Assembly (NCBI GenBank): GCA_030280995.1
Contig: JASXTE010000001.1
Coordinates: forward strand, 6,536,501-6,600,500
Direction of reading: 5' to 3'
DNA from: Hemileia vastatrix
Lineage: Eukaryota; Basidiomycota; Pucciniomycetes; Pucciniales; Zaghouaniaceae
Length of the DNA stretch: 64,000 nucleotides
The position numbers were made by a program, and so were the translations under genes. Positions 4,096 through 56,554 of the stretch are shown here, piece by piece. Numbering within the stretch: position 1 is the first letter of the stretch; every line of letters begins with the position of its first letter. The notes beneath the pieces are model-generated. The model was not told the origin of the DNA. It did not search any database and worked only from the letters and a program-made list of their open reading frames with translations.

Positions 4096-4179
4096 TTATT
4101 ATTTTTCTTTTAAATAAAAGTAAAAATACAAACTAATTCATCTTATTTTCTCCCCCTCTCATTGCAGTGAAAATTAGAA

Positions 4180-12119: not shown

Positions 12120-12123
12120 TTCA

Positions 12124-25827: not shown

Positions 25828-25871
25828 GGGGGTATCAATGTTGACCAATCCGCAATTAAATTAATTGCGGA
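25828..25871. repeat. Left terminal repeat of H1 with inner palindrome
   Basis: The terminal GGGGGTATCAATGTTGACC is followed by a 23-bp palindrome TCCGCAATTAA/TTAATTGCGGA at 25849-25871. Paired with the right end (31889-31903). Subterminal palindromes are likely transposase or Myb-protein binding sites (inference). Confidence 0.8.
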
Positions 25872-26177
25872 AAATAATCTGCATACCCCAATTATCTTCC
25901 ATAGATATTTTTGCTAATAATTGGGTTATTAGACACTTTACGTGTCAATGTTCACCTCTTATCTGACATTTTTATCCTCAATATTTGATAACCACATCTT
26001 GGACAACTTTCTGGATATCCCAGCCTTCTACCTTGCTGCCCACTTCCATTCTCATCCCATCCTGCTCACTCTATCCGCTCAGAATTTCTCCCCATTTCAT
26101 CTATTTGATTCTTCTCCTTTTCATCTCGCTATCTCATCTGCTTGTTTCTGCTCCTTTTCATCTTCATTTATAATAAC

Positions 26178-27527
26178 ACGCCTCGTCATCCTAGATCTTC
26201 TCAAAGGCAGCCATCACCGAGTTGTTCTTCAATTCCCACTACTTCCTCATTCACCCGCTCAGCTGAGAAATCAAAGACCGTTCAATTAAAAAAAGATGAA
26301 AATCTGATTCTTATCAACTGGCTGAAAACCAAATCTAACTATGATTCTTGTTTTGGTACTGAGTATGCCACTAAAGTAGGACGGCCCCCCGCATCAAACG
26401 TTAATGGCTATCTTCTAATGGCAAATGAATTACGCACTAAGACCAAGGGAAGGATTGATCTTTTGCCTAAACAGATTTCTGAACGCTTCAAGCATTACCA
26501 AGCAAAATACAAGAAGGCAAAGGCTCTTTCATCTTCCACTGGTTTTGGGATTACCGACAACGATATAACTAAGGGCATAAAATCCATAGACGATAAGCTT
26601 GATTCTTTATGTCCTTACTTTAAAGAGATGGATGCAACTTTTGGAGAGCAAGCAGATGTTAATCCTGTAAACATGTTGGATGGAGAAGATCCTATCTCCA
26701 AACATGATGTTGAAGAAAATCTTTTCCCATCCTCTTCCTCCACTCAAGCCTCCCCTCATTTGAATGAGACATATATAGATAGCTTTTCTGTAGATCCTAT
26801 AGGTGATTTAACCCAACCAAATATAACTCAGGTCTGTTTCTTTTTTCTTTTATCTTATCTTTTCTATTTTTTATTTACTTATCTTTTTCTTATTTCTTAA
26901 AAGGCTTATGAATAAACCCAGGATCCTCAATCAACTGAGTCTGAAGCTAGTGACAATGATGAGGAGGAAAATGCTACGTTGAACAAAAAGCAAAGGGCTT
27001 CAAGTAGTGTAAATTTCATCTCCCAAAGAAGACGAAAAAGTGATACTTCATCACAAACACCTTTTTCTTCGATGGAACAGTTTTTAGAGAAACGTGATGC
27101 TGGTAAGTGATATCATACCTCTTATCACTTTACACTGCTTTTCTTCTACTTTATGTTAATTTTTATTCTCACTCTAGAACAAGTGGAAATTGCTAAAGAG
27201 ACTCTAAGCTTTGAAAAGAAGAAATACAAGCTCTCTTTAAGGAGGGATGACAGAGTACAAGATTTTGAAGAGAGGAAGTACAAGCTCTCCTTACGGAAGG
27301 ATGATCGGGTCCAAGATTTGGAGGAGAAGAAGTTTGAGTTAACTCTCAGTATTGAAAAATCCAAAAAAGAGGAAAAAACACTTGAGCATCAAAACTTAAT
27401 GGAACAGATGAAGTATAAGCATGATCTTCAAGAAAGTTCTAAAAAGAAAGATTTCTTGATCGAATGCATTAAAGCAAACAAATCTGTTGAAGAAATAGAA
27501 CATTTAATAAAATTTTTTGTTGACTAG
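26178..27527 (+). pseudogene. Myb/SANT-like accessory protein of H1 (three exons)
   Basis: Exon 1 to 26831, intron 26832-26903 (GT-AG, 72 bp), exon 2 26904-27102, intron 27103-27177 (GTAAGT...CTAG, 75 bp), exon 3 to the TAG at 27525. No ATG opens exon 1; an ACG at 26178, where a likely N-terminus (PRHPRSSQRQ) begins, may be a mutated ATG. One TAA lies early in exon 2. Exon 1 has a basic Ser-rich head, then a trihelix/Myb-like domain (DENLILINWLKTKSNYDS, SERFKHYQAKYKKAK). Exon 3 is a charged coiled coil with repeated YKLSLR-DDRVQD. Harbinger elements usually encode such a DNA-binding partner that helps import and target the transposase, and the divergent position supports this role. Confidence 0.7.
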
Positions 27528-27654
27528 TTTGTTTTATTTCTTTCACACTTCATGTGTTCATATTTATTTGTACATAAATTTTACAATTATTTTCTGTATT
27601 TCTTGAAATTTTGTATTTTAATGTTAAATATTCTTTTTTTAAATAAAATTTTCA

Positions 27655-28090
27655 AGTCTCCTTTGAAAATTTGACAATCTCCCACCCCTGGATTTTTTTG
27701 AAGTAAGGGGTGGGTATCACAAAAATTCTTTCATGTCATGAATCTTGAAAGTCTTATATGAAAATTTGGCTTTACTACCCCCTGCATTTTACCGGTATCC
27801 CCAAAATTCTTACAAGTCAAGAATTTCACAAGTCTTATAAGAAATTTTGGCAATACCCCCCCTGGATTTTATTGAAGTAAGGGACGGGTATCACCAAAAA
27901 AATTTCACCAAAAAATTTACAAGTCAAAAAAATTCTATATCTGTTTTAAAAAATTGGAAATAATCTCCCCTGCATTTTATTGAAGCAAGGGGTGGATATC
28001 ACCAAAATTTTTCTAAGTCATCAATTTCACATGTCAGATTTGAAAATTTGGCAATAACCCCCCTGCATTTTATTGAAGTAAGGGGTGAAA
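27655..28090. repeat. About 95-bp imperfect tandem repeats in H1
   Basis: Five units built on CCCCTGCATTTTATTGAAG-AAGGGGTGG-TATCACCAAAA, at about 27684, 27778, 27857, 27966 and 28061. The last two units are also present in H2a (about 39740-39950). Lies between the 3' ends of the Myb-like gene and the TET-like gene. Confidence 0.8.
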
Positions 28091-28091
28091 G

Positions 28092-28295
28092 TCATCTAAA
28101 TTTAATATTATTACATAAATTATTAAATAAATATCTAATATATATCACTTTACCTAGTTTAAAGTAATGACAATCCCTCAAGCCAAAATGCAGACCAAGT
28201 CTAGAAACAAAAGTTTGGGACTTTCCACAGGTATAAGCTAGAGGAACCCCATGAAACAAATAAATGTTATCATGATTACCTTTTATACAACACAA
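28092..28295 (-). CDS. Small ORF downstream of the TET-like gene, unknown
   Basis: 67 codons on the minus strand; contains GNHDNIYLFHGVPLAYTCG and GLHFGLRDCHYFKLGKV. A nearly identical copy lies at 39942-40145 in H2a. It follows the TET-like frame by about 90 bp and could be a decayed last exon of that gene. Because the two copies are so similar, conservation says little. No known domain recognised. Confidence 0.3.
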   Translation of the reverse strand: MCCIKGNHDNIYLFHGVPLAYTCGKSQTFVSRLGLHFGLRDCHYFKLGKVIYIRYLFNNLCNNIKFR

Positions 28296-28388
28296 GGTCG
28301 TTGGCCCATTACTTTAGTTGAGGAAATTGATACATAAAAAATATTTACTAAAAATTTATGAAAAAATATAAAATTTTCGATGACAACT

Positions 28389-29040
28389 CTAATCCCCATA
28401 CTTTTTGGATCTAAAAAAAGTTTTTTTAAATCGATTAACTTTACCTTCTTTCTTTACCTTATTGATTCTATGAATCAACTTATGACTGATTTGAAATGAG
28501 CAACCAAAATGTGTTAAATCTTGACAGGATTCCAAACCAGGAGGAGCTTTGGTCGTTTGATGATTATCCTTAGAAGAATTCCAAATAGTTTCGATGATAC
28601 CATTTCCCAAACCAAAATCAATGATGCACCGGTGGTCTGGAAAATATAAACAATGTCCTTTGATTTTAGCTGGAGATGGTATTGGTTTCCCAGTAATCGG
28701 TTTGATATATGAGAATATACCAAAAGTAAGAAAATTGGCATCATTCCTATCGATATGAATCCTATTGTGGAATCCAGAATGAGTGATAATAACATTAGAG
28801 AATAAAAGATATTTGTGGCTGATATCTTCCCATTCTGAGTCACACCAATTTGGTATTCCAACATTGGTTGCAAGTTCATGATTTTCTTCAAATGCTTTAT
28901 TACAGAGCTTTTTGAGTCAAAAAGCAAGAAAAGAGTTAAAGGAAGGTAGAGTGTCCCATAAGCGAAAATCTTCATCTTTTTGAGCTTTAGTGATATTCTT
29001 GAGCAACGAATACATGCCTAGATAATAATCATATAAGAGT
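28389..29040 (-). pseudogene. TET/JBP-like 2-oxoglutarate/Fe(II) dioxygenase in H1
   Basis: Minus-strand frame from MYSLLKNITKAQK (ATG 29015) to the TAG at 28389. One in-frame TGA (SFLAF*LKK) early on, also present in the H2a copy. Readable core: SNVIITHSGFHNRIHID, where H-x-D is the metal site; LTFGIFSYIKPITGKPIP; GHCLYFPDHRCIIDFG; GIIETIWNSSKDNHQTT, giving the distal His; then THFGCSFQISHKLIHRI. This order (HxD, FG-aromatic, a GH-x-FP-x-H turn, a VVE/IIE strand, H-T-T) is that of fungal TET/JBP-type oxygenases, which oxidise 5-methylcytosine or thymine in DNA. Known fungal relatives travel with KDZ transposons; here the gene lies in a Harbinger. The early TGA may be a mutation or may lie in an unrecognised intron. 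Family call is by eye. Confidence 0.65.
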
Positions 29041-29104
29041 TTCAGAATCTTTATCCTCTAAATATGCAATATAAAAATGTGAAATAAGACAAGTGAAATT
29101 TGGA

Positions 29105-29430
29105 AAAAAGGCTCAACTTCAAAGGTCAAAATCTCAGCAACCACTGAACCTAATTCAAACCTGTTTGAGGGAAATGAAAGATATGCTTTAGTAGAATCTT
29201 CAGTTAAAGGACACGTGATTTAAATAAACCTAACCCTAATTTGTTACATAAAAAAATGAAAAAAAAATTTAAATTGGGAAAAAAAAGGCTCAACTTTAAC
29301 AGTCAATATCTCAGCAACCACTGAATCAAATTCAATTCTGTTTGTAGGAAATGAAAGGTAGCCTTCAGGAGAATCTTCAGTAAAATGAACATTAGATTTG
29401 AATAAACCTAACCCTAATTCCGAGTCTGGT
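29105..29430. repeat. Duplicated ~180-bp unit upstream of the TET-like gene
   Basis: Two copies (about 29109-29245 and 29288-29425) sharing GGCTCAACTT, ATCTCAGCAACCACTGAA, GGAAATGAAAG and AATAAACCTAACCCTAATT. The same pair occurs at 40940-41255 in H2a. Non-coding. Confidence 0.75.
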
Positions 29431-29562
29431 TTTCAAAATTTTACAAAAACTTGAAAAGTGGTAATGAAGATGAGATCAAAAGGAGTTTTATAAGTTCACT
29501 GTTATCCAGATAAGAGTCATACATATATTTAAGTATGAACTTTTCATAAAAGGAATGAGATA

Positions 29563-30240
29563 TCATATAGGCATGAAAAAAAGGAGATGAAACTTACCTT
29601 GATTGAAAAGTAGGAAAAATAGAGTGAGAAAGATTGATGTTGGAATTGTGGGGAAATTGAATATGGAGTAAGTGAAATGCATAAAGAATGTGCAATGTAT
29701 GTGTTTCAATGAAATGGAGCCAAAAAAAAGTGAAATAAGGGAAAGGGGGGATAATGACCATGCCAAGGAGGGATGAAGAGTAGGGTGATGGAGCTAAAAA
29801 AGAAAGTAAAGAGGGAGAGAAAAAAAAGGTTAATTATACCATTGAAATCCAAAATAACCACTTACAAAAAAAATTTAGATAAAAAAAATAAAATAAACAG
29901 AAAAAAACAAAAAAAATATAATTAGTAATCAAAAAATCAAAAAAAATGAATAAAATGACTTACCTGGAGAGATGAGATGACAAAATGAATGAAACCAAAT
30001 TGTTTAAGGGATGTTGGAGGAGAATAGGAAAAGAATATGAGGGATGAATGAAAAAAAAAAATCACAGACAAAATATGCAATTTCAGAAAATATGCGATTT
30101 CATGTTGAGCTGGTGAAAGAAAACCAATGAGCCATCCAAAAAAAAGATATTCACCGTAAATTCAAAAAAAAAATGAATATGCAACAAACCAAAATACAAA
30201 ACCAAGTGAATAAAGTACACAAAGATGACATTTGGAAAGT
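29563..30240 (-). other. Probable 5' exons and leader of the TET-like gene
   Basis: Two strong minus-strand splice donors, CAG/GTAAGTCA (boundary about 29965) and AAG/GTAAGTTTC (about 29596), lie upstream of the TET-like frame. The second closes an open stretch with an ATG (MPIIPPF-like frames are weak). A leader piece, CTCAACATGAAATCGCATAT, at about 30090-30110 is also found in H2b (about 43860) just downstream of its transposase. Exon structure is inferred, not proven. Confidence 0.4.
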
Positions 30241-30262
30241 ATGAAAACATAAAAATTAAAAA

Positions 30263-31524
30263 TTAAAAGCGTTGCAAAGTGAAATGTTGGAGAGTAATTG
30301 GCATTATAATGGAGCGTATGCCAGTTGATTGAATGATTTGTGAATCAAGGGAGGGGAGTGCCGGTGGTGGTTCAGGATCCTCTTCTTCATAAAGATCATT
30401 CCACTCATCCTTTAAATCAGCTAGAATATTGTGGAGTATTACGCAAGTCAAGATCCAATGATTTGCAGTTTTGATCTCCAATTCTTTTTGAAATTGGATT
30501 CTGAGCTCCCGAAGACTAGAGAATCGTCCCTTTAAAATACCTATAGCATGTTCAATTCGTACTCTTGATTGTGCAAGGTGATAATTAAAGGCAGTTTTGG
30601 GGTCATTTTCTGAATTTGAACCACGGAAAGCAGGTATAATGTACTTTCCACTTGCATATGCTGAGTCTGCAAGGAGGTACTGAGATTCGTCAAAGTATGA
30701 TTCAGGGGATTGAGAAATCCTCATTCTTTGGAAGACGGAAGAGTCATGACATGATCCAGGGCAGCCACTGTGAAAAGCAATAAATTTTTATTGACATCGC
30801 ATACAAGTTGAACGGCAATAGAGTATCTAGAAAGAAGATAAAAAGTTAGATTGTGAAAGATGAGAACTTGGAGAAGATTTTGAAGAAGCCTTTTTTTGCA
30901 ATCAAAATAATGGTTCCCATAATGAGCAGGCTTTTGACTTAAAGGTATAGTTGTGCCATCAACAAAACCTATACAGCCAGGGAAACCTTCAGCTTGCATT
31001 ACTTGAGAGGATTCAAGTCGCTGTTTTGGAGTTGGCCAAGCAAGAGTTTGATTCTTGATGGAAAGGATAGCAATCATACAGCGCTTGGTGTATAATATCA
31101 TGGTAACATATCCTATGTCAAAGAGATTATCCAAACGTCTTACGGCAGCACCATTTCCATTTGAGCCAAAGCGACATAGAGCAACAGCAAGTTGGATGGC
31201 AGGATTACGCTGTTTGTTATGAGAATTGTTATGGAAGATAGGATGATCGGAGATGAGTTGATAAAGTTTGAAGAAAGAATCAGGAGAAGTTCTAAAAAGT
31301 TGTGTGAAGTTTAAATGAGGAATGTTGAGAATGGAGGCCAGATCATATCGGGGATCATGATAAAGATTTGGCCCCCTGGTGATGATGTAACGCTTTTTGG
31401 AAAGAAAACACATATAAGCTAAAGCATCTTCCAAATCAGAGTCAGATTTATAGTAGAGAACTAAAAGTAAAGTGATGGCATTAATAGTGGAGTGAAGTAG
31501 CCGTCTAGTAGAGAGGTGTTTCAT
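30263..31524 (-). pseudogene. PIF/Harbinger DDE transposase of H1 (one frameshift)
   Basis: ATG at 31524 (the frame is open to 31575 only through a TTG). Exon 1 to 30890; 63-bp intron 30889-30827 with a GC donor (GCTTC) and TTTCTAG acceptor; exon 2 to the TAA before 30263. The H2b gene has a GT donor at the same place. A one-base loss in an A run (about 30785-30790) shifts the frame just after NKN. Across the shift the sequence reads GCPGSCHDSSVFQRM. Catalytic residues: Asp in CIGFVDGTTIPLSQKP, Asp in SCHDS, Glu in SRVRIEHAIGILKG. So the DDE triad is complete and only one slip disables it. Also characteristic: LADSAYASGKYIIPAFRG. Role: cut-and-paste at TTA. Confidence 0.85.
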
Positions 31525-31788
31525 TGTTGCCGGTGGAAGGGTTATGTGATGAGGGAAGTGGGAATTCACCGCCAAATGTGCAGTTGGGGTGTGTAGATAG
31601 AGAAAAAACTTAAGTGTTTGCCACCAAAATTAAGTAGCATAGAGTGAGGAAAGACTTAAGGATGGCATCAGCAATTATGAGTCATGTGACTTTCTTGCAA
31701 ATCCATCATGGATGAGATGAGTTTGGGATCAGGAATTAGGAATGGAAATTGGGGTATAAGAGGCGGGATAATGCATTATTGTGGATTC

Positions 31789-31905
31789 CTTATCCACTAG
31801 CCCCGGGGCTAGTGGATAAGAATCTTCCGCAATTAATAATGTCTGATCCCGGAAAAAAAAATTGCTGATCCCTGATTGCGGATCCCTGAACATTGATACC
31901 CCCTA
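31789..31905. repeat. Right terminal repeat of H1 with a perfect 32-bp palindrome
   Basis: 31789-31820 is a perfect palindrome, CTTATCCACTAGCCCC followed by its complement. The terminus AACATTGATACCCCC follows at 31889-31903 and then TA before TTA. The counterpart in H2 is imperfect (CACTAGCCCCAATACTAGTGG near 38880). Confidence 0.85.
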
Positions 31906-31908
31906 TTA

Positions 31909-32098
31909 AAAAGAATACTGATTATTCATCTCAAAACAATTACTATAAAATATTTTATTGATCATTTAATATCAAGTGGAGGTTTTAGCTTAGTTAATTG
32001 TGAATTTTTTATTTACATAAAGGGAAAGGGTTTTCTTTGGTTTATCCAGCTCCCTTGGATTCTACTTACAGAAAGGAAACTGTAAGAGTCTTTCTAAA
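31909..32098 (+). repeat. 5' LTR of G2, right part
   Basis: Continues the LTR after H1 and ends ACTGTAAGAGTCTTTCTAAA, aligned with the 3' LTR end (...GTCTATCTACA at 51006). Confidence 0.8.
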
Positions 32099-32102
32099 TT
32101 GG

Positions 32103-32121
32103 TGGCGCCAAATGTGGGGGC
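32103..32121 (+). other. Primer-binding site of G2
   Basis: TGGCGCCAAATGTGGGGGC, 4 nt after the LTR end, equivalent to the site of G1. Confidence 0.65.
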
Positions 32122-32236
32122 TTGAATTCTCTAGCTATTAATCAATCTTACTTGGTATCTTGACTTGCTTAGTCTGCAAGAGGCTTACTTAACAAATGGC
32201 TATACTCTTTTGATGGTTTAATCTTGTAATTTTGGG

Positions 32237-33647
32237 ATGTATTCTGCTGCTGGATCTGGTGTTTCACTTCCTGTATATTTGTCAGTCAGGATTGTATCTT
32301 GAGATGGGCCCAAGTTTAATGGGGAAGAAGTTAAATGGTTCTTAAATCAGTATGAAGCTGATGCTGTTGTTGATGGTGCTTCACATTTGGATATGGTGAA
32401 GCAGATTTGGTTCTTTATTGTGGACAGAGAGGTTGAAATGGAGGTCATTGCTATGGATGGTTATAAAAAGTGGGACTGGTTGAAATTGTCAAAAGAGATG
32501 GTTGATAGATGGGGAGTTAGTTATACTATGGTGAGCTTTAACAATATTTTCAGTGATTGGTAAGCTAAAGGTGCTGTTTCAACTATGGTGGACTTTAAAA
32601 ACTTATGTAGGCAGTTTGATGAAGTAGTGGAACATTTGATTCTGGTTGAGGAGATAGGTCATGAAAATCAGGCAAAAGATTTATTTTGGTCATCTTTCAG
32701 TAGGGATATCAGGATGAATGTTTTAAAGGAACTGTATAGGAAGAACTTGATGGAAGATCTACCAAATGGAGAACAAAAACTGCCTGCTCTGGAGGTCATT
32801 AAAGAAAATATTCAGGCATATTTAAAGCTAATGGCATAGGACAAATATCAAGAATACTGCACTCAATATTTTAGCAAGGTTAGTGAAGTTTTGGCTGAAA
32901 ATAATGATATTATGGTCAAGTCTCAGTTGGGTCAGCCTGTTTCTAAGGTTGAGGGAAATGTTGATATTAGGATCTTGGATCATTTAGCTGACTTAACTAA
33001 GAAGCTCAAAATATTTTTTTCAAGAAACTCAGAAGGCCAAAAGAGCGCCTGTGGCTTCATCATCAACATCTTATTCTTATCAATCAAGAGTTTATGAGAG
33101 GAGGAATTATGGATTTAATGGAAATGTGAATTGGCTTAATGGGAATGGAAATGGAAATAGAAATGGTGGTAGTAATGGAAATGGTAACAGTGGTTATGGG
33201 GAACCTAGAGTATGCTCCTATTGTAATAGGAGGGGGCACAAAGCAGCAGATTGTTATTTTTTGAACAAGGACTTTCAAGCTGGTAGAGTCAAATTTGATG
33301 GAAAGGTTTACAAATTCCCAGATGTATATTTCATCAAACCCAGTGATGGGAATGCACCTTTGGATTTAGTTAGAAGGAATATGATGGCTGAAAAGATAGC
33401 CAGGTTTGAAGAGTTAACTGGTGATGATGATGAAAATGTTAAAGGTGGGAAAAGGATTGTTGGAAATTATGGTGGAAAAGTAGATAAGGGGAAACAAAAG
33501 GAGGCCATTAAGGCCACTTTTACAGCTTATTTTGGTGTATTGGAGCTAGGAGCCATTGCTAAGGTGGATGGTAACTGTATGGTTGGGGAGTATGATGTGG
33601 ATGCTGTCAGAAGAGCAGCTGCTAATAAATCTAAAAGTAGCATTTAA
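32237..33647 (+). pseudogene. gag: Gag of G2 with zinc knuckle, broken
   Basis: ATG at about 32237. The core matches the intact G1 gag: LSVRIVS, stop, DGPKFNGEEV, HLDMVKQIWFFIVDREVE, AMDGYKK. A TAG/TAA pattern breaks it near 32560 and 32837. After a frameshift near 33051 comes a Gly/Asn-rich stretch and a CCHC zinc knuckle CSYCNRRGHKAADC (about 33213-33254), then a basic and acidic tail to TAA 33645. It shows what G1 lacks: the knuckle that binds element RNA. Several stops; not functional. Confidence 0.8.
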
Positions 33648-33650
33648 AGC

Positions 33651-34190
33651 CAAATTAGGGAAAAATTAGGCAAGGCTGAAATTAATAATATTGAAAATAA
33701 ACCTTACTCAAAGGAAAAAATTTATAGAATGCAGAAGGGTATGGCAGATATGAGGCCTCCCAGTTTTGGAAATTTGGATTTAAATGATGAGCCTATGCCT
33801 GAGGATGAAAAATCGGATTCTGAGGAAGATGTACAAATAGTTTCTCTTCCCAGAACAAGTTTTTCTGGTCCTACTCATATGGAAGGGGTAAGGAGAGTCA
33901 GTGATGAATCTGGTTTAGGGAACAAATCTGGTGATGTAGCTAGGATTATGGTAGATGAAGATGTTAATATGGGGGGTTAATATGGCAATGTGGGTTCTCA
34001 AAAGGTGCCTAGGTCCAAGGTTATCAAAATTAAAGTACAATATGAAAGGCCAGTAGTATCTGGTCAAGAAAATTCTATGGAAATCGTTTTAGGTAGAGTG
34101 AATCAACTTCAGATTCCTCTATCTTTGGGGGAATTATTTATGATTAGTCCTGCCCTTTCAGAGAAGCAAAAGAAGCATATACCAAGGTGA
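33651..34190 (+). pseudogene. G2 gag-protease linker
   Basis: Two open pieces (33729-33980 and 33990-34190) in one frame, split by TAA at 33978. Acidic first, then basic. DLNDEPMPEDEKSDSEEDVQ and IPLSLGELFMISPALSEK resemble the linker before fungal Gypsy proteases, where ...EL..ISP... is common. No catalytic residues. Confidence 0.5.
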
Positions 34191-34199
34191 TGTGTATCT

Positions 34200-34670
34200 G
34201 CAGGAGAAGTGGAGTATATTTGTGAAAATTCTAAGAAGTTTGGAGAGGATTTTGAAACTCATTTTTCTTCTCCTTTAGGGTATTTAATGGTAATGTTGAA
34301 TGGAAAAGAGGTAAAGGCCCTGGTGGATTCTGGGTCTCAAATTAATTTAATTTCTTTAGACCAAGCAGCTAATATAGGCTTGCTAATTAAATCTGGTATT
34401 GGTGGAAACCTAAGATGTATAGGAAGGCATGCAACCAAACTTATGGGTATGGCTAAACATGTCAAGTTAAGTGTAGGTGGATCTGTTGGTAGGGTGAATT
34501 TTCATATTGCCAGAAGAGCTGTGAAAACAGTTCTTGGTGGGCCATTTTTGATGGATTTTGAGGCCAGAATAGGTTATCAGAGTGGAATGGGGGTTAGTTT
34601 AGAGATAACAGGTGAAGATATGAGGCAGCTTCATATGCAGTTGGCACCTCTAGGAGAAAATTGTTGGTAG
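34200..34670 (+). pseudogene. Retropepsin-like protease of G2
   Basis: GYLMVMLNGKEVKALVDSGS begins the domain; the DSG triad (about 34327) is intact and followed by QINLIS. Then GRHATKLMGMAKHVKLSVGG, and the second conserved strand VLGGPFLMDFEARIGY at about 34525-34570. Open for 153 codons up to the TAG at 34668, so the domain itself is intact, but flanking stops disconnect it from gag and RT. Confidence 0.75.
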
Positions 34671-34779
34671 ACAAGGCCTGGCTGAACTACTATGTGCCAG
34701 TGTTGTATGTGCACCAAGAAGAAACAAATTAAAAGGTCAGCTTCTGGTGAATTTATAAAAAATAATAAGTATGAACACC

Positions 34780-35420: not shown

Positions 35421-35559
35421 AAACTCAAGTCAAAGTGGATGTTGATGTGGAAAAATATATAAAGGTAGCTAATATAGTTAGACCAATAAATGAACCCCTT
35501 CTGGCAAAATTAAATCCACCCTTGAGAAGATCAACTTTATCATGAGATCCATATGAATT

Positions 35560-36655: not shown

Positions 36656-37085
36656 GAGGTGTTTGAGAGATTGAAGAAGGTTTTTGGAGAAGATATTATC
36701 CTGCATAAGTTAGATTATGTAAAAGATGCAGGTAGAATTTATTTAGCAGCTGATTCAAGTCAGATTGCTGCTGGGGTAGGTCTGTCCCATATTAGACCAG
36801 TAAGATATGAATCTATAGTTTTCACTGAGGTGGAGTCAAGATATTCACAACCAAAATTGGCGCTTTATGGAGTGGTGAAAATTTTAAAGAAGCTTCAAAT
36901 GTTTTATGGGGACAACACTTCAAACTACAAGTGGATGCAAAATCTTTAATTCAAATGATTAATTCTCTTAATTTACTGAATGTATCCGTGACCAGATGGG
37001 TAGCTTTAATTCATAATTTTTCTTTTGATCTATTTCATAAGCCTGGAAAGATGTTTATTATGCCAGATGTATTTTCAAGAAGACC
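36656..37085 (+). pseudogene. RNase H of G2
   Basis: FERLKKVFGEDIILHKLDY, RIYLAADSSQIAAGVGL (first Asp), ESRYSQPKLALYGVVKILKK (Gln/Lys around the Glu position), then VDAKSLIQMINSLN (Asp), followed by VTRWVALIHNFSFDLFHKPG and MPDVFSRRPP, the usual RNase H end. One frameshift near 36940. Confidence 0.75.
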
Positions 37086-37866
37086 ACCCACAGAAGAGGA
37101 TTTTGACTCTGAAGAATTCAATGAAGATATACCTGTAATCAAGGCCAGCATGAAAGGTGCTGAAGACTTTCCTTACCTCCCCCATGAGGTAAAACTGGCT
37201 GGCTTAATAAGTTTAGATAATGAGGACCTCCCAAATGAGGATAGACTGGATAATAATAATAAAAATATAGTAAATTATGTGCTTGGGGAGTTCAATGATG
37301 GTTTAGAAAAACTCAGTAAAAAAGAAGTTGGAGATGTTGTGTATATGGATGAGGATGGTGATATTTTGTGGGATAGTAGAGAGCTGGTGAATGGTGTATA
37401 TTTTGGAATGTTATTAAATTTGGTTAAAGAGAGGTTGGGTGATTGTTAAAATTTGTTTAAAAGGAGGTTGGACAAAGAGGAGGATGTTGATGCTGAAAAG
37501 GGTAAAAAAGGAAAAGAAGAAAATTTGGTTGTAAAATGGTTGAAAGGTTCAAAAGTGGAAAACTCAAAATCTTTTATGATAAATAGGAAAATTAAAGGAT
37601 TAAAATTATTGTCTCATTCATGTGCAGGTGATTTAGGAGATAGGGAAGTGCCCATAGATGTGATATTAATGGATTTTCAAGATGATGTCTGGGTACAGAC
37701 AGGTTTTTATTATAAAATGGTTAAATATTTATTAAAATTAGAAAGGCTGGATAACTGTTATAATGATGAATGGCTGGCTATCAAAAGGAATTTGCCGGAA
37801 GTTTATCTATCTGAAAGAAAATTTATGAGGAGGAGGTATATAAATCCTCAAGTTGCTTTACCATAA
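37086..37866 (+). pseudogene. G2 RNase H-integrase linker
   Basis: Acidic, low-similarity region (two open pieces, 37086-37449 and 37453-37866, same frame, split by TAA 37447). GRELVNG/VYFGMLLNLV parts have no known motif. It ends in LSERKFMRRRYINPQ, the normal lead-in to the integrase zinc domain. Confidence 0.55.
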
Positions 37867-38609
37867 AAGAAAGGGCAAGAATTGGTTATGAAGTTACTGC
37901 ATGAAGATCTTGGGCATAGAGGAGTGGGTGAAACTTATAGGCAAATTGATGATAGATTTTTGTGGCATTGAATGATACTGGCTGTTAAAAAATGGGCTCA
38001 GTCATGCAATGAATGTCAAAGGAGGAGTTATTTAAGGACAAAGGAACCTGGACATGCAACTGGAAAAAACACTCTTTTTAGTAGGGTTAGTTTGGATGAT
38101 GTTCATATAAAAGAGGGGAGATATAAGTATTTAATTGTAGCCAGTGATGAATTATCTGGTTAGGCAGAGGCAGCTCCTCTTATGAATCTGAATTTTAGGA
38201 ATGTGGAAGATTCTTTAATGAAAAGTTGGGTGTATTGGTATGGAGTTATGAATTTGGTAACAGTTGATGGAGGTCCTTAATTTGGGACAGAGTTTAGAAA
38301 GGCTATAATAAAATTTAGATCAAAGGCTAGGGTAGCAAACTCATATTAGCCTAAATCTGTAAGAATTGTAGAAAGAGGGTATCAAGTTATAAAGGATGCT
38401 TTAGTTAAAATGTGTGGAGCAAGTGCTGAAAAGTGGAGGCACTATTTACCATTAGTTTTATTTTCTGAGAGAATCACTTCTAAAAGTAAAACTGGATATT
38501 CACCATATGAACTAGTTTTGGCCAGTAAAAATTATTACCAGTTGATATAGAGGCTGGATCATATCTTGGATTAGACTGAGATATGTTCAAAACTAGTGAA
38601 GAATTATTA
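37867..38609 (+). pseudogene. Integrase of G2, first part
   Basis: Zinc domain: KLLHEDLGHRGVGETYRQI (two His), CNECQRRS (two Cys). Core: RVSLDDVHIK (first Asp), VTVDGGP (second Asp, followed by a TAA), SVRIVERGYQVIKDAL (Glu). Then WRHYLPLVLFSERITSKSKTGYSPYELV. Stops at 37969, 38161, 38278 and 38347, and a frameshift near 38535. The frame GAA GAA TTA TTA is cut at 38609 by the MITE and H2a and continues at 45673 with TGT GCA AGA. Confidence 0.8.
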
Positions 38610-38810
38610 GGGGGTATTAAAGCTAAAAATCTTTCATTTTCATAATTACTTTTTTTCCCACTAAATCAACTATGATTATTTTTTAAAATATGGCATACTG
38701 TGCCCCAAAAACACCTTTTTACAGCTATTTAATGTCAATTTTGTGGCTTCTGTTTTGAGTTGTAAAATAACTTTCAAATATTTACAAATTTCTAACATTG
38801 ATACCCCCTA
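38610..38810. mobile_element. MITE (201 bp), copy 1
   Basis: GGGGGTATTAAAG...CATTGATACCCCCTA, flanked by TTA on both sides (38607-38609 and 38811-38813). In reverse orientation it matches 56555-56757 (shared GGTGTTTTTGGGGCACA, CATATTT, AATAATCATNGTTGATTT). Its ends are like H1's, so H1-type transposase could mobilise it (inference). Confidence 0.85.
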
Positions 38811-38845
38811 TTAGGGGGTGTCAGTTCTGGCAAATCCGCACTTAC

Positions 38846-38873
38846 AAATCCGCACTTAAATAAGTGCGGATTT
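38846..38873. repeat. Subterminal palindrome of H2a
   Basis: AAATCCGCACTTA and its reverse complement around a 2-nt centre. The CCGCACTT unit also occurs once more at 38836, and inverted at the right end (45620-45645). Confidence 0.75.
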
Positions 38874-39098
38874 CCAAAACACACTAGCCCCAATACTAGT
38901 GGATTTCAAAATGAAATAAGTCACTTATTTCACTCAAATCCACACTTTCTCAACCAAAAGTGCTGATTTCACCATCAAGTCCCATTTCACTGATTTATCA
39001 GCATCATCTGATTCATACGCAGCACTCCGCAGCATAACACTTCATAACTCAAAACATCGTACATCACTTACATCTTCATATCATATCATATAAGAGTT

Positions 39099-39732
39099 AT
39101 GTCTTCCTCACTTTCAAATCGTGATAAATTACATAAAGCAATGACTTTCATGGCTCTTGAACTGCTCTTGGACTCTGATTCCGATTCTGATTCTGATCTA
39201 GAAGAAGATTTTGTCTTTTTATCAAAAATGGCCACGAAACGTTACCTTCTTCCCAGAAAGCCTCAAGTACTTCATACCCCCAAGTACACCATCCAAACAC
39301 TTTTTAAACTATCTACACCCAGTTTTAGACAGCTGTTCAGGACCTCTCAGGAATGTTTCCTTAAATTGCTTGAGCTTATTTAGGAGCATCCCATATTTCC
39401 TAATAATTCTCAAAAAGAACAACAACATCCTTCAATTCAATTGGCCATCACACTATGTCATTTGGATTCAAATGGTAATGGAGCCACTTTGAAACGTTTA
39501 GAAAATGTCTTTGATTTAGGGTATGGTTCAGTTAACACTTATACCAAACAATGTATCACTTCCATCAACTCCTTCTAATCTCAACTTCTCACCTGGCCAA
39601 CAAAAGAAAAGCGACTTGAATCATCTCAGGTTATGCAAGCAGAGGGCTTCCCAGGATGTATTGGTTTTGTTGATGGTACTGATATTCCTTTGAGCCAGAA
39701 ACCTGCTCAAGGTGGAAACAATTACTTTCACA
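39099..39732 (+). pseudogene. Transposase of H2a, truncated
   Basis: ATG 39099. Same protein as H2b (LLDSDSDSDSDLEEDF, PQVLHTPKYTIQTL, FRQLFRTSQECFLKLLELI). Stops at 39381 and 39578. CIGFVDGTDIPLSQKPAQ (first catalytic Asp) is present. The frame breaks after GGNNYF, where the TET module begins, so the second Asp and the Glu are missing. Confidence 0.8.
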
Positions 39733-39739
39733 TTCTCGT

Positions 39740-42060
39740 CAAAAATTTTCACCAAAATATTTACAAGTCAAAAAAATTCTATATCTGTTTTAAAAAATTG
39801 GCAATACTCTCCCCTGCATTTTATTGAAGCAAGGGGTGGATATCACCAAAATTTTTCTAAGTCATCAATTTCACATTTCAGATTTGAAAATTTGGCAATA
39901 CCCCCCCCCCCCCTGCATTTTATTGAAGTAAGTGGTGAAAGTCATCTAAATTTAATATAATTACGTAAATTATTAAATAAATATCTAATATATATCACTT
40001 TCCCTAGTTTAAAGTAATGACAATCCCTCAAGCCAAAATGCAGACCAAGTCTAGAAACAAAAGTTTGGGACTTTCCACAGGTATAGGCTAGAGGAACCCC
40101 ATGAAACAAATAAATGTTATCATGATTACCATTTATACAACACAAGGTCGTGGGCCCATTACTTTAGTTGAGGAAATTGATACATAAAAAATATTTATTA
40201 AAAATTTATGAAAAAATATAAAATTTTCGATGACAACTCTAATCCCCATACTTTTTGGATCTAAATAAAGTTTTTTTAAATCGATTAACTTTACCTTCTT
40301 TAATTACCTTATTGATTCTTTGAATCAACTTATGACTGATTTGAAATGAGCAAGCAAAATGTGTTAAATCTTGACAGGATTCCAAACCAGGAGGAGCTTT
40401 GGTCATTTGATTATTATCCTTAGAAGAATTCCAAATAGTTTCGATGATACCATTTCCCAAACCAAAATCAATGATGCACTGGTGGTCTGGAAAATATAAA
40501 CTATGTCATTTAGTTTTAGCTGGAGATGGTATTGGTTGGCCAGTAATTGGTTTGATATATGAGAATATACCAAAAGTAAGAAAATTGGTGTCCTTGGTAT
40601 CAGTGTGAATTTTATTGTGAAATCCAGAATTAGTGATAATAACATTAGAAAATAAAAGATATTCGTGGCTGATATCTTCCAATTCGGTATTCCAACTTTG
40701 GTTGCAAGTTCATGATTTTCTTCAAATGCTTTATTACAGTGCTTTTTGAGTCAAAGAGCAAGAAAAGAGTTAAAGGAAGGTAGAGTGTCCCATAAGCAAA
40801 AATCTTCATCTTTTTGAGCTTTAGTGATATTTTTGAGCAACAAATATATGCCTAGATAATAATCATATAAGAGTTTCAGAATCCTTATCCTCTAAATATG
40901 CAATATAAAAATGTGAAATAAGACAAGTGAAATTTGGAAAAAAGGCTCAACTTCAAAGGTCAAAATCTCAGCAACCACTGAACCTAATTCAAACCTGTTT
41001 GAGGGAAATGAAAGATATGCTTTAGTAGAATCTTCAGTTAAAGGACATGTGATTTAAATAAACCTAACCCTAATTTGTTACATAAAAAAATGAAATAAAA
41101 ATTTAAATTGGGAAAAAAAAGGCTCAACTTTAACGGACAATATCTCAGCAACCACTGAATCAAATTCAAATCTGTTTGTGGGAAATGAAAGGTAGCCTTC
41201 AGGAGAATCTTCAGTAAAAAGAACATTAGATTTGAATAAACCTAACCCTAATTCCGAGTCTGGTTTTCAAAATTTTACAAAAACTTGAAAAGTGGTAATG
41301 AAGATGAGATCAAAAGGAGTTTTATAAGTTCACTGTTATCCAGATAAGAGTCATACATATATTTAAGTATGAAATTTTCATAAATGGAATGAGATATCAT
41401 ATAGGCATGAAAAAAAGGAGATGAAACTTACCTTGATTGAAAAGTAGGAAAAATAGAGTGAGAAAGATTGATGTTGGAATTGTGGGGAAATTGAATATGG
41501 AGTAAGTGAAATGCATAAAGAATGTGCAATGTATGTGTTTCAATGAAATGGAGCCAAAAAAAAGTGAAATAAGGGAAAGGGGGGATAATGACCATGCCAA
41601 GGAGGGATGAAGAGTAGGGTGATGGAGCTAAAAAAGAAAGTAAAGAGGGAGAGAAAAAAAAGGTTAATTATACCATTGAAATCCAAAATAACCACTTACA
41701 AAAAAAATTTAGATAAAAAAAATAAAATAAACAGAAAAAAACAAAAAAAATTATAATTAGTAATCAAAAAATCAAAATAAAAGAATAAAGTGACTTACTT
41801 GGAGAGATGAGATGACAAAATGAATGAAACCAAATTGTTTGAGGGATGTTTGAGGAGAATAGGAAAAGGATATGAGGGATGAATGAAAAAAAAAATCACT
41901 GACAAAATATGCGATTTCATGTTGAGCTGGTGAAAGAAAACCAATGAGCCATCCAAAAAAAAAATTTTCACTGTAAATTCCAAAAAAAATGAATATGCAA
42001 CAAACCAAAATACCAACCCAAGTGAATGAAGTACACAAAGAGGACATTTGGAGAGTACAA
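39740..42060. repeat. TET module of H2a (2.3-kb duplicate of 27900-30230)
   Basis: Collinear and nearly identical by eye to the H1 segment: tandem-repeat tail, small ORF (39942-40145), TET-like gene (40239 on), duplicated units, leader and donor sites. Left junction near 39732-39743, right junction near 42055. A C tract at 39901-39913 is longer than in H1 (6 C). Confidence 0.85.
40239..40880 (-). pseudogene. TET/JBP-like dioxygenase of H2a, inactive copy
   Basis: Parallel to the H1 copy: SNVIITNSGFHNKIHTDTKD keeps H-x-D, then LTFGIFSYIKPITGQPIP, a stop at the KGHC position (TK*HS), LYFPDHQCIIDFGLGNGIIE. The distal His is Asn here (KDNNQMT rather than KDNHQTT), which would remove a metal ligand. 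The TGA in SFLAL*LKK is shared with H1, so it pre-dates the duplication. Ends at the same KKYGD TAG. Confidence 0.65.
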
Positions 42061-42457
42061 AATGGTATGGGAAAGAAAGGGATGATGTGGCCAACATGTT
42101 GTTTTGAAAAAAAAATCACGAAAAAAGTGCTGATTTGAGGTCAGAACTGACACCCATAGAAAAAAGATTAAGAAGTAGAAGAAATAGGGGGTGTCAGTTC
42201 TGGCAAATCCGCACTTAAATAAGTGCGGATTTCCAAAACACACTAGCCCCAATACTGGTGGATTTCAAAATGAAATAAGTCACTTATTTCACTCAAATCC
42301 GCACTTTCTCAACCAAAAGTGCTGATTTCACCATCAAGTCCCATTTCACTGATTTGTCAGCATCATCCCATTCATACGCAGCACTCCGCAGCATAACACT
42401 TCATAACTCAAAACATCGTACATCACTTACATCTTCATATCATATCATATAAGAGTC

Positions 42458-43717
42458 ATGCCTTCCTCACTTTCAAATCGTGATAAATTACATAAAGCAA
42501 TGACTTTCATGGCGCTTGAACTGCTCTTGGACTCTGATTCCGATTCTGATCTAGAAGAAGATTTTGTCGTTTTATCAAAAATGGCCAGGAAACGTTACCT
42601 TCTTCCCAGAAAGCCTCAAGTACTTCATACCTCCAAGTACACCATCCAAACACTTCTTAACCTATCTACACCCAGTTTTAGACAGCTGTTCAGGACTTCT
42701 CAGGAATGTTTCCTTAAATTGCTTGAGCTTATTCAGGATCATCCCATATTTCACAATAATTCTCAAAAAGAACAACGACATCCTTCAATTCAATTGGCCA
42801 TCACACTATGTCGTTTGGGTTCAAATGGTAATGGAGCCGCTTTGAAACGTTTAGAAAATGTCTTTGATTTAGGGTATGGTTCAGTTAACACTTATACCAA
42901 ACGATGTATCACTGCCATCAACTCCTTGGAATCTCAACTTCTCACCTGGCCAACAAAAGAAGAGCGACTTGAATCATCTCAGGTTATGCAAGCAGAGGGC
43001 TTTCCAGGATGTATTCGTTTTGTTGATGGTACTACTATTCCTTTGAGCCAGAAACCTGCTCAAGGTGGAAACAATTACTTTGACGGTAAAAAGAGGTAGA
43101 TTATTTTTAACTCCTTTCATCCTCCTTGAAACTAACACAAACAAATATATCTTCTTTATAGATATTCAATTAACGTTCAGCTTATATGTGACGTAAACAA
43201 AAAATTTATATCATTCTTCGCTGGCTATCCTGGCTCATGTCATGACTCCTAGGTCTTCCAAAGAATGCATATTTCAAATGAACCTGAAAAATTCTTTGAT
43301 GAAAATCAGTATCTTCTTGCAGATTCTGCTTATGTGAATGGAAAGTATGTACTTCCTGCTTTTCGGGGAGCAGCTTCAGAAGACAGTCAAAATGCCAAAT
43401 TCAACAATCATTTGGCAAAGTCAAGAGTCCGTATTGAACATTCTATTGGAATCTTGAAAGGCCATTTTTCTAGTTTAAGGTAATTAAGAAGTCCTCTTAG
43501 AAATAAATCTGAAATGGAGGCGGTGATCAACTGGATTCTGTGTTGCACTATACTTCATAACCTACTTGCTGACCTCAAAGATCAATGGTTAGAGCTGTAT
43601 GAAGATGAACAAGCTGATTCACCTCTGACTATATCCAACACTTCTATTTCTCAATCAACTAGTATAAGGGCGAAAATCCTTCCAATAACACTCCTACATT
43701 TTTCAACGCAATTTTAA
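42458..43717 (+). pseudogene. PIF/Harbinger DDE transposase of H2b
   Basis: ATG 42458, exon 1 to 43095, intron 43096-43161 (GTAGAT...TTTATAG, 66 bp), exon 2 to TAA about 43717. Acidic Asp/Ser head, then PQVLHTSKYTIQTLLNLS, HTH-like region LAITLCRLGSNGNGAALKRL, VFDLGYGSVNTYTKR. Catalytic: Asp in RFVDGTTIPLSQKP (Arg replaces Gly in CIGF), Asp in GYPGSCHDS, Glu in SRVRIEHSIGILKG. Premature TAG 43250-43252 straight after CHDS and TAA 43481-43483. It served to establish the intron and the frame used for H1. Confidence 0.88.
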
Positions 43718-43739
43718 TTTTTTTCTCTTTCCCTTCAAA

Positions 43740-43905
43740 TTATCAATTCGCATGTATTATTCACTGAGAATGGTAAATTTTTTTGCATATTTTTTTGGTT
43801 TTTGAATTTGCTGTTAAAGTCTTATTTTTTTTTCTCTCTGTGTTTTCTTTCATCAACTCAACATGAAATCGCATATTTTCAGCAAACGCATATTTTTTCA
43901 GTCAC
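43740..43905 (+). other. Leader remnant of a TET-like gene in H2b
   Basis: CAACGC-ATTTTAATTTTT directly after the transposase stop and CTCAACATGAAATCGCATAT at about 43857 match the minus strand of H1 at 30260 and 30110 in the same order and spacing. H2b therefore once had the transposase-then-TET order of H1; the coding part is gone. Confidence 0.6.
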
Positions 43906-44960
43906 TCAAAGGTTGGGAAAGAGTTGGAAGGGAAGATTAAGGGTTCCGAGGCATTTTAAATGAAGAAAAGGGTCTGGGAGAGGTTGAGAGGGGTGAAATG
44001 GGGATCAAAAGAGGTTGGCATACAATGGGGCTGGGAGGATAGCGAAAGGCATGGGGAGGGAAGACAAGCATGTGTTGATAGAATTGAAAGGGATGGAGAT
44101 TGGTGCAAACAGAGTGTGAAAATAGGAGGATGAACTCTGTTCTTCGGGCGAAGAACAGAGTTCACTTCCATAAAATATTAGCTGAAACATAGTTTTCAAT
44201 TCTGTAAAAACAGTTGTAAGTAATAGAAAAAGTCACTGATTTTTTTTATATGTAATCCTTGCTTTACGAGGAGACTTTTGTGACGAAGCAAAGTTTTGAG
44301 TTACCTTTAAAAGAGGATGGCATACAATGGGGCTGGGAGGATAGCGAAAGGCATGGGGAGGGAAGACAAGCATGTGTTGATAGAATTGAAAGGGATGGAG
44401 ATTGGTGCAAACAGAGTGTGAAAATAGGAGGATGAACTCTGTTCTTCGGGCGAAGAACAGAGTTCACTTCCATAAAATATTAGCTGAAACATAGTTTTCA
44501 ATTCTGTAAAAACAGTTGTAAGTAATAGAAAAAGTCACTGATTTTTTTTATATGGAATCCTTGCTTTACGAGGAGACTTTTGTGACGAAGCAGATTTTTG
44601 AGTTACCTTTTGAGATTTGGAATGTCTGGGAGGCATTATGAAACTGGCACATAACAAGAAAAAAGATTAAAAAGTAGAAGAAATAAGTAAAAAAGAATGT
44701 AAACATGCCTGGTCAAAATATTGAAAATGTTGGAGATTGGTGCAAACAGAATGTGAAAATAGGAGGATGAACTCTGTTCTTCGGGCGAAGAACAGAGTTC
44801 ACTTCCATAAAATATTAGCTGAAACATAGTTTTCAATTCTGTAAAAACAGTTGTAAGTAATAGAAAAAGTCACTGATTTTTTGTATATGTAATCCTTGCT
44901 TTACGAGGAGACTTTTGTGACGAAGCAGATTTTTGAGTTACCTTTTGAGATTTGGAATGT
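43906..44960 (-). repeat. Hairpin-module repeats in the right arm of H2b
   Basis: About 300-335-bp direct repeats. Each has a 34-bp hairpin with 16-bp perfect arms (TGAACTCTGTTCTTCG) at 44131-44164, 44433-44466 and 44768-44801, and downstream GCTTTACGAGGAGACTTTTG. On the opposite strand the first unit continues into the pyrimidine-rich flank seen in E-A and E-B. Confidence 0.85.
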
Positions 44961-45669
44961 CTGGGAGGCATTATGAAACTGGCACATAACAAGAAAAAAG
45001 ATTAAAAAGTAGAAGAAATAAGTAAAAAAGAATGTAAACATGCCTGGTCAAAATATTGAAAATGTCAGGAAGGGGTGTGTGCCGAGGATTGATGGGTAGG
45101 TAGCGAGGAAGGTCAGTGTGTCACATGTGACAGGGATGGGGTAAGAAACGAAGGGATGTTTTGTGGCCAAAATGTGGTTGTGAAAAAAAACGGGAAAAAA
45201 GTGCTGATTTGAGGTCATAACTGACACCCTTTTTTGAAATAAGTGACTTTTTTGCAAAATTTAAGTGCTGATTTGTAAGTGCTGATTTGGTTTGAAATCC
45301 GCACTTAATTTAAGTGCGGATTTGCCAGAACTGACACCCCCTAATAAGTAAAAAAGAATGTAAACATGCCTGGTCAAAATATTGAAAATGTCAGGAAGGG
45401 GTGTGTGCCGAGGATTGATGGGTAGGTAGCAAGGAAGGTCAGTGTGTCACATGTGACAGGGATGGGGTAAGAAAGGAAGGGACGTTTTGTGGCCAAAATG
45501 TGGTTGTGAAAAAAAACGGGAAAAAAGTGCTGATTTGAGGTCATAACTGACACCCTTTTTCGAAATAAGTGACTTTTTTGCAAAATTTAAGTGCTGATTT
45601 GTAAGTGCTGATTTGGTTTGAAATCCGCACTTAAGTTAAGTGCGGATTTGCCAGAACTGACACCCCCTA
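44957..45669 (+). repeat. Duplicated right arms of H2b and H2a
   Basis: 45020-45343 (H2b) and 45346-45669 (H2a) are almost identical: AAGTAAAAAAGAATG, CATGCCTGGTCAAAATATTG, CACATGTGACAGGG, GTGCTGATTTGAGGTCATAA, then the TIR. They belong to the two nested elements, not to a tandem duplication. Confidence 0.85.
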
Positions 45670-45672
45670 TTA

Positions 45673-56551: not shown

Positions 56552-56554
56552 TTA

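What the first reader, a model, noticed from the sequence alone, without database searches (positions are those of the whole stretch)
25828..45343. TET/JBP-like DNA dioxygenase as a passenger of PIF/Harbinger elements
H1 carries a TET/JBP-like gene between its transposase and Myb-like genes. H2a carries a second copy. H2b keeps only the gene's leader in the H1 order. Fungal TET/JBP expansions are known to accompany KDZ transposons; an association with Harbinger would be a different mobile carrier of a cytosine-oxidising enzyme, and a plausible way for an element to act on its own methylation state. The sequence shows the location and the H-x-D...H motifs. The family name is recognition by eye, and the functional idea is inference.
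Basis: partly seen in the sequence, partly recalled or inferred. Interest (0 to 1): 0.88.

Follow-up and report, generated by a model that had tools for sequence, protein, structure and literature searches.

The report
Jumping genes carrying TET-like enzyme
In what is probably a rust-fungus genome, a large family of cut-and-paste transposons carries a gene for a TET-like DNA-oxidising enzyme, and one hybrid offshoot carrying that gene without a working transposase has spread to about 1,400 copies; such carriers were first described in 2025, so this is a new variant of a known kind.

Summary
H1 (25827-31904) is a PIF/Harbinger element with 16-bp perfect TIRs, a 3-bp TSD (ATT), a related empty site in the window, a DDE_Tnp_4 transposase, a Myb/SANT-like gene (sub-threshold match) and a Pfam PF20515 "Tet-like" domain (9.8e-25). 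TET+ Harbinger elements in rusts were published in December 2025 (Kojima, PHISTA), so the association is not new.

New here: (1) 3-bp AWT duplications (PHISTA: TA), a Myb/SANT-like gene (PHISTA: none), and a transposase outside the clade of 17 of the 23 Puccinia rows in my tree. (2) High copy number: 1,746 exact copies of a 24-mer of the TET exon. (3) H2a is a chimera: an inverted TET module replaced half of another Harbinger family's transposase; its junctions occur 1,397 and 1,479 times. Eight of 9 fetched copies have both TIRs and matching TSDs, so it transposed. (4) Eight of those 9 share a stop in TET; all 21 fetched H1 copies are open at that codon. (5) C-to-T decay at CpG marks these copies.

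H2b's "leader" is ordinary element sequence. Anti-silencing function remains inference.

The parts
25827..31904 (.). H1: complete TET+ PIF/Harbinger element, 6,078 bp; TIR AGGGGGTATCAATGTT; TSD ATT at 25824-25826 and 31905-31907
   Evidence: ends, TIR, TSD; related empty site 50417-51004
26178..27527 (+). Myb/SANT-like gene, exons (read by eye) about 26178-26831 (start uncertain), 26922-27102, 27178-27527
   Evidence: PF13837 E 0.0017-0.0022, below the curated cut-off; from 26397 on, no stop in 14 of 18 copies with gaps ignored; 4 of 18 differ in exon 1 length and 2 in exon 3 length
28389..29039 (-). TET-like 2OG-Fe(II) dioxygenase domain exon, HxD motif HID; one in-frame TGA at 28917-28919 in this copy
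   Evidence: PF20515 9.8e-25, 5.3e-30 over profile 59-211 with X at the TGA; no net length change in the 30 fetched copies
30263..31524 (-). Harbinger transposase (DDE_Tnp_4), N-terminal exon about 30889-31524, C-terminal exon from 30263; this copy carries one frameshift
   Evidence: PF13359 1.9e-20; the five other copies translated lack this frameshift
27897..30241 (.). 2.35-kb module shared with H2a; 29865-30241 also occurs in sampled elements without TET
38813..45668 (.). H2a: chimeric, non-autonomous TET-carrying Harbinger (about 3.7 kb without the nested H2b); TSD ATT at 38810-38812 (shared with the MITE beside it) and 45669-45671
   Evidence: 8 of 9 fetched genome copies with both TIRs and TSD
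39099..39728 (+). truncated H2-family transposase of H2a (C-terminal half missing; one stop shared by all 10 rows aligned)
39729..39740 (.). short filler at the capture junction; a 39-mer across the junction occurs 1,397 times genome-wide (up to 3 mismatches), reversed control 0
40239..40873 (-). second TET copy (H2a): HTD instead of HID, 16-bp deletion and stops in this copy
   Evidence: (PF20515 2.2e-13 for the C-terminal piece with X at a stop)
42186..45342 (.). H2b: H2-family Harbinger without a TET gene, nested in H2a; TSD AAT; transposase about 42458-43717 with an intron and two stops
43908..45065 (.). filler with tandem repeats in the place where TET+ elements have the TET gene; similar translated text in L081, L083, L084
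50417..51004 (.). related empty site without H1; target ATT at 50813-50815

Best explanation
H1 is one copy of a very high-copy TET+ PIF/Harbinger family (transposase, TET-like dioxygenase, Myb/SANT-like protein; 3-bp AWT target duplications). Versions with and without TET coexist. H2a is a chimera: the TET-bearing intergenic block of an H1-like element was copied, inverted, into a second Harbinger family in place of the second half of its transposase, probably by template switching during repair. The result is a non-autonomous, TET-carrying element that then multiplied to about 1,400 copies, presumably mobilised by H2-type transposase. Shown: domains, ends, duplications, capture junctions, copy counts, CpG decay. 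Inferred: that TET oxidises 5-methylcytosine and helps the family escape methylation-linked silencing or mutation, in cis or as a shared product; also the repair mechanism and the source of transposase.
For: PF20515 match. TIR/TSD in five window elements, 8 of 9 H2a copies and 8 of 10 H1 copies. 30 of 30 fetched module copies in Harbinger context. Of the 150 best H1-type TET hits, 27 have one of the 150 best Myb-like hits and 14 one of the 150 best transposase hits within 7.5 kb, 25 of the 27 at 2.2-2.3 kb in opposite orientation and all 14 at 2.5-4.2 kb on the same strand; random shifts give means of 0.56 and 0.50. Junction 39-mers 1,397 and 1,479 times, reversed controls 0. TET exon of unchanged length in the 30 fetched copies (the window's H2a copy, not among them, has a deletion), and dN/dS 0.52 (bootstrap 0.35-0.83) in 21 H1 copies, against 1.23 (0.61-3.33) for the H2a transposase remnant. 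CpG C-to-T 0.144 per site-copy against 0.0127 outside CpG.
Against: Function is untested. TET structure model unusable (pLDDT 41.9); no PDB match by sequence or profile; no protein-database match at E 0.001. SANT match below Pfam's cut-off, 2 of 6 members. TET is dispensable: 3 of 4 sampled H1-type transposases lack TET in the adjacent 4 kb; 11 of 21 H1 and 9 of 9 H2a copies have a stop in the TET exon; 3 of 21 H1 copies read HIN instead of HID. H1 Myb-like (0.44-1.09) and transposase (0.45-1.11; 0.65-2.20) dN/dS intervals overlap that of TET and include 1, so TET is not clearly more constrained. The 8 cytosine-methyltransferase matches lie on contigs C74, C228, C350 and C561, none of which appears among the transposon hits listed, so the host's methylation machinery is not settled.
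Confidence: 0.8

Rival explanations
1. The TET gene is inert cargo: it rides on Harbinger elements because it sits in a dispensable intergenic region, is shuffled by recombination, and gives no benefit.
For: Elements without TET in the 4 kb read are 3 of 4 sampled; 1,015 exact copies of the stop allele, on contig C2 mostly at exact H2a junctions (33 of 44); 11 of 21 H1 and 9 of 9 H2a copies carry a stop in the TET exon.
Against: Unchanged length of the TET exon in the 30 fetched copies, while flanking noncoding stretches and transposase exons vary in length among H1 copies; H1 dN/dS 0.52 with interval below 1; about 118 of the 150 best TET hits have no stop inside the match, by my count of the rows; published TET capture by seven transposon lineages in rusts.
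Confidence: 0.3
2. H1/H2 are simply PHISTA elements as described by Kojima, and the different TSD is a matter of how the ends are read.
For: Every end read also fits TA-GGGGG...CCCCC-TA; Kojima lists TET+ Harbinger families with TA duplications, one host being Austropuccinia psidii.
Against: Two sequences without the insertion (for H1 at 50808; for H2b the repeat copy near 45000-45034, read by eye) give a 3-bp, not a 2-bp, duplication; the variable middle base (ATT or AAT) agrees on both sides in the 21 elements (5; 8; 8), and the one later case, L085, reads AAT/AAC. The elements have a Myb/SANT-like gene (weak match), which Kojima says PHISTA lacks; the P. graminis and P. triticina transposases in my tree fall in another clade.
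Confidence: 0.3
3. The 2.35-kb module is itself a transposon that jumps into Harbinger elements.
For: Same module in two element families, in opposite orientations relative to the transposase.
Against: The 30 fetched copies lie in just two contexts; no TIR or TSD seen by eye at the aligned module edges, and a 12-bp filler at one junction; the transposase-side part of the module belongs to elements without TET too. Kojima reached the same view for other captures.
Confidence: 0.04

Closest known systems
PHISTA, TET+ Harbinger elements of Pucciniales (Kojima 2025, PMC12730594)
   Same: Harbinger-superfamily transposase plus TET/JBP-like gene plus a third protein; rust hosts; TET+ and TET-less relatives side by side; TET passed between transposon families
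   Different: PHISTA: TA duplications and no Myb/SANT in the third protein (section 3.1.4). Here: 3-bp AWT duplications and a Myb/SANT-like third gene. The TET module is on average 96.2% identical between H1 and H2a copies; Kojima's only TET pair from different transposons above 70% nucleotide identity is about 80%, but that is between superfamilies, whereas H1 and H2 are both Harbinger. Copy numbers were not compared
Nuwa-type Harbinger (as described in Kojima's text after Han et al.)
   Same: transposase plus Myb/SANT protein and 3-bp TSD
   Different: in the text seen, Nuwa encodes only those two proteins; membership by transposase phylogeny not tested, as no Nuwa reference was at hand
KDZ (Kyakuja-Dileera-Zisupton) elements with TET/JBP (Iyer et al., known here only through Kojima's text)
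   Same: fungal DNA transposon carrying a TET/JBP gene
   Different: unrelated transposase; PF18758 found nothing in this genome (its controls were silent too, so absence is not shown)

Membership tests
PIF/Harbinger superfamily | DDE_Tnp_4 transposase | tested here: met
   PF13359 1.9e-20 in H1; HARBI1-annotated relatives among the hits
PIF/Harbinger superfamily | 3-bp target site duplication | tested here: met
   ATT/AAT agreeing on both sides of 21 elements (5 in the window, two of them sharing one triplet; 8 H2a; 8 H1). Not counted: L059, L048, L032 (one end not read); against: L085 AAT/AAC. Canonical TWA not seen: the triplet is AWT if the TIR starts with A
PIF/Harbinger superfamily | second gene with Myb/SANT domain | tested here: inconclusive
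   PF13837 E 0.0017, 2 of 6 members match at E 1, below cut-off; model pLDDT 49.5
PHISTA (TET+ Harbinger) | TA dinucleotide TSD | tested here: not met
   3-bp by comparison with sequences lacking the insertion and by agreement of the triplets
PHISTA (TET+ Harbinger) | third protein without Myb/SANT domain | tested here: inconclusive
   weak Myb/SANT match
PHISTA (TET+ Harbinger) | transposase inside the PHISTA clade | not testable with these tools
   reference sequences are in supplements that were not open; my tree has no labelled PHISTA row
TET/JBP-like 2OG-Fe(II) dioxygenase (PF20515) | profile match above the curated cut-off | tested here: met
   88.2 bits against 27
TET/JBP-like 2OG-Fe(II) dioxygenase (PF20515) | HxD iron-binding motif | tested here: met
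   His and Asp invariant in the 14-row alignment of rows chosen without stops (the window row with its TGA read as W; H95, D97); exceptions elsewhere: L009 and L027, HIN in 3 of 21 H1 copies
TET/JBP-like 2OG-Fe(II) dioxygenase (PF20515) | distal His of the facial triad | tested here: inconclusive
   several conserved His (H129, H136, H177 invariant; H160 nearly); which one serves is not settled, no usable structure
TET/JBP-like 2OG-Fe(II) dioxygenase (PF20515) | 5mC oxidation | not testable with these tools
   needs biochemistry
KDZ carrier | KDZ transposase in the element | tested here: not met
   H1 encodes DDE_Tnp_4 and H2b a relative of it; PF18758 0 matches in the genome (no positive control)

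The most novel reading that the evidence does not exclude
A TET gene has become the payload of a non-autonomous transposon: H2a carries TET without a working transposase, borrows transposition from H2-type elements, and burst to about 1,400 copies. Open-TET and stop-TET copies, together with TET+ and TET-less H1 elements, form a built-in experiment on whether an element-encoded demethylase protects its carrier from methylation and TCG mutation, alone or as a shared good.
Probability: 0.35. Interest if true: 0.72.

Novelty: new variant of a known kind. Interest (0 to 1): 0.55.

Why it matters
It adds a Harbinger lineage with 3-bp duplications and a Myb/SANT-like gene to the known TET carriers. 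It also shows a TET capture young enough (module about 96% identical between the two families, both junctions readable) to study how the gene moves. One genome holds many copies with and without TET, and open and stopped alleles of one TET gene, all under CpG decay; whether transposon-borne TET counters silencing could therefore be tested from native long reads.

Tried and rejected
Leads that failed. TET structure prediction (pLDDT 41.9) and Myb-like prediction (49.5) were too poor to compare with structure libraries, so no fold search was run. PDB sequence and profile searches found nothing. The protein-database search for TET found nothing, although Pucciniales transposases were found. The first idea that the shared TGA proves a common broken ancestor was dropped: that codon is CGA in 15, TGA in 11, CAA in 3 and CGG in 1 of 30 copies, which fits recurrent CpG change. 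Reading H2b as having lost TET was dropped. Script slips: wrong TET frame (the per-copy stop counts there are void, redone); wrong Myb frame and boundary, redone; wrong transposase N-frame, redone. Literature search was badly put (it matched 'rust' alone). My notebook calls the repeat at 43908-45065 a perfect palindrome; it is an inverted repeat with 14-bp arms around GGGC.
Full report
The window belongs to a 747.6-Mb assembly in 791 contigs.

1. The observation. H1 runs from 25827 to 31904, with a perfect 16-bp TIR and ATT on both sides. The flanks match 50417-51004, where the element is missing. Pfam finds DDE_Tnp_4 (1.9e-20) in the transposase, 2OG-FeII_Oxy_6, described as Tet-like, in 28389-28916 (9.8e-25), and a sub-threshold Myb/SANT-like match (0.0022) in the plus-strand gene. 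Reading the TET frame with X at its single in-frame TGA gives 5.3e-30 over profile positions 59-211. The window transposase of H1 has a frameshift that the five other copies I translated lack.

2. H2a and H2b. H2a (38813-45668) holds the same 2.35-kb module at 94.9% identity. There the module is inverted, and it abuts a transposase cut off after about 210 residues, with 12 bases of filler. H2b (42186-45342, TSD AAT) is nested in H2a. In these, filler stands where TET+ elements have TET.

3. Genome-wide check. The module search returned 40 scored full-length copies of 8,301 first-look candidates; 30 were fetched with 1.5-kb flanks. Of these 30 (the window's H1 included), 21 are in H1 context and 9 in H2a context. 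They are the best matches, not a random sample. Eight of 9 H2a copies have both 31-bp TIRs (29-31 of 31 matching) and identical triplets on both sides; in the ninth (L059) the right end was not found intact. Ends of 10 of the 21 H1 copies were fetched: 8 have both ends and identical triplets, while in 2 (L048, L032) one end was not in the piece. With the five window elements (H1, H2a, H2b, two MITEs; one MITE and H2a share a triplet) that makes 21 cases with ATT or AAT agreeing on both sides; L085, read later, has AAT/AAC. Thirty-nine-mers across the two H2a junctions occur 1,397 and 1,479 times with up to 3 mismatches, reversed controls 0. On contig C2, 14 of 30 exact left junctions have an exact right junction 2.2-2.5 kb downstream; inexact partners were not listed.

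4. TET abundance and context. PF20515 gave 150 scored hits of 10,849 candidates; 30 loci were cut out, and 12 of these 30 have a Myb-like match next to TET within 1.5 kb, one a transposase match. Among the three top-150 lists transposases have a TET hit, 12 a Myb-like hit, and 8 Myb-like hits a TET hit within 7.5 kb; shifts give about 0.5 each. The 150 best hits of the H1 TET are 90-100% identical over the query. Of these 150, 27 have one of the 150 best Myb-like hits and 14 one of the 150 best transposase hits within 7.5 kb; random shifts give 0.56 and 0.50. Only the best of many thousands of candidates are compared, so overlaps are lower bounds. Conversely, of 4 H1-type transposases that I picked from the 150, with 4 kb downstream, one has TET, two have the Myb-like gene without TET, and one has neither.

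5. State of the genes. In the 30 fetched copies the TET exon keeps its length; 10 of 21 H1 copies have no internal stop and all 9 H2a copies have at least one. Eight of 9 H2a copies share one stop, and L051 has a leucine codon there; all 21 H1 copies have glycine. Genome-wide the exact 24-mer with that stop occurs 1,015 times and the open (glycine) version 1,746 times. On contig C2, 33 of 44 stop alleles and 3 of 88 open alleles lie at an exact H2a junction; 17 of 30 left and 24 of 38 right junctions have the exact stop allele. Two stop alleles lie next to a Myb-like hit at H1 spacing, so the stop is not confined to H2a. One open-allele H2a element was fetched: both TIRs (29 and 31 of 31), a TET frame without stop over 211 residues, inserted in another TET-like gene (L085). 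dN/dS: TET in H1 0.52 (0.35-0.83), TET in H2a 0.38 (0.18-0.90), Myb-like 0.68 (0.44-1.09), transposase exons 0.70 (0.45-1.11) and 1.16 (0.65-2.20), H2a transposase remnant 1.23 (0.61-3.33). A noncoding stretch read as if coding gave 0.88 and 0.87. Codons with a stop or gap were skipped. L046 was left out of the H1 whole-locus alignment, and L034 and L039 also from the Myb set.

6. Exchange. The window's H2a TET differs from H1 in a cluster around the HxD motif (HTDTKDTN against HIDRNDAN), while upstream noncoding sequence is 98-99% identical; all 9 fetched H2a copies have HTDTKDTN. A separate lineage, L020, has HTDTNDTN. The donor therefore looks like a mosaic or an H1 relative, not the H1 type in this window.

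7. Mutation. Against the column majority of the 30 copies, C-to-T at CpG is 0.144 per site-copy, elsewhere 0.0127; transversions are equal (0.011 and 0.011). By trinucleotide TCG is 0.194, GCG 0.200 (30 site-copies only), ACG 0.067, CCG 0.052. Kojima's text (section 4.2) reports TCG hypermutation in Pucciniomycotina, citing others. Methyltransferase matches number 8, all on contigs C74, C228, C350 and C561, on none of which a transposon hit was listed.

8. What is known. Kojima (PMC12730594; I saw the abstract, passages, sections 3.1.4 and 3.4 whole, and part 1 of 2 of section 4; supplements were not open) describes TET+ Harbinger (PHISTA) in six Pucciniales with TA duplications and no Myb/SANT in the third protein. 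Searches of the paper library for this topic were made; no other title or abstract start in those listings describes it, and I opened no other paper. The tree of 46 transposases (44 of the 120 hits plus H1 and H2b) puts H1 and H2b together (84/47) and with six P. coronata and P. striiformis sequences (100/99), next to a clade of six A. psidii sequences (93/77); another clade holds 17 Puccinia rows, among them all the P. graminis and P. triticina rows used.

Verdict. The carrier class is already published; the lineage, the young chimeric capture and its burst are, as far as the listed searches go, new here. Function is inference.

Noticed in passing
38609-38809 and 56554-56756: About 200-bp MITEs with H1-like TIRs and ATT duplications; H2a is inserted directly beside the first, in what reads as a Gypsy polyprotein (by eye)
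   Followed up: partly
43908-45065; also 52139-52486 and 12116-12378: Tandemly repeated filler with an inverted repeat of 14-bp arms (GAACTCTGTTCTTC-GGGC-GAAGAACAGAGTTC); similar translated text in L081, L083 and L084; a dispersed repeat of unknown nature
   Followed up: partly
L085:122-244 and 3977-4135: An H2a element has inserted into another TET-like gene, i.e. a TET transposon inside a TET gene
   Followed up: no
G000 contigs C74, C228, C350, C561: All 8 DNA_methylase (PF00145) matches lie on these four contigs, none of which shows up in the listed transposon hits; host genes on unplaced contigs or contamination
   Followed up: no
29071-29241 and 29248-29419: Internal tandem duplication (82%) upstream of the TET exon, also seen in the module loci
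   Followed up: no
L001-L030: TET-like genes fall into several lineages (about 53-58%, 76-79% and 87-91% identical to H1 TET); some distant ones have a Myb-like neighbour too
   Followed up: partly
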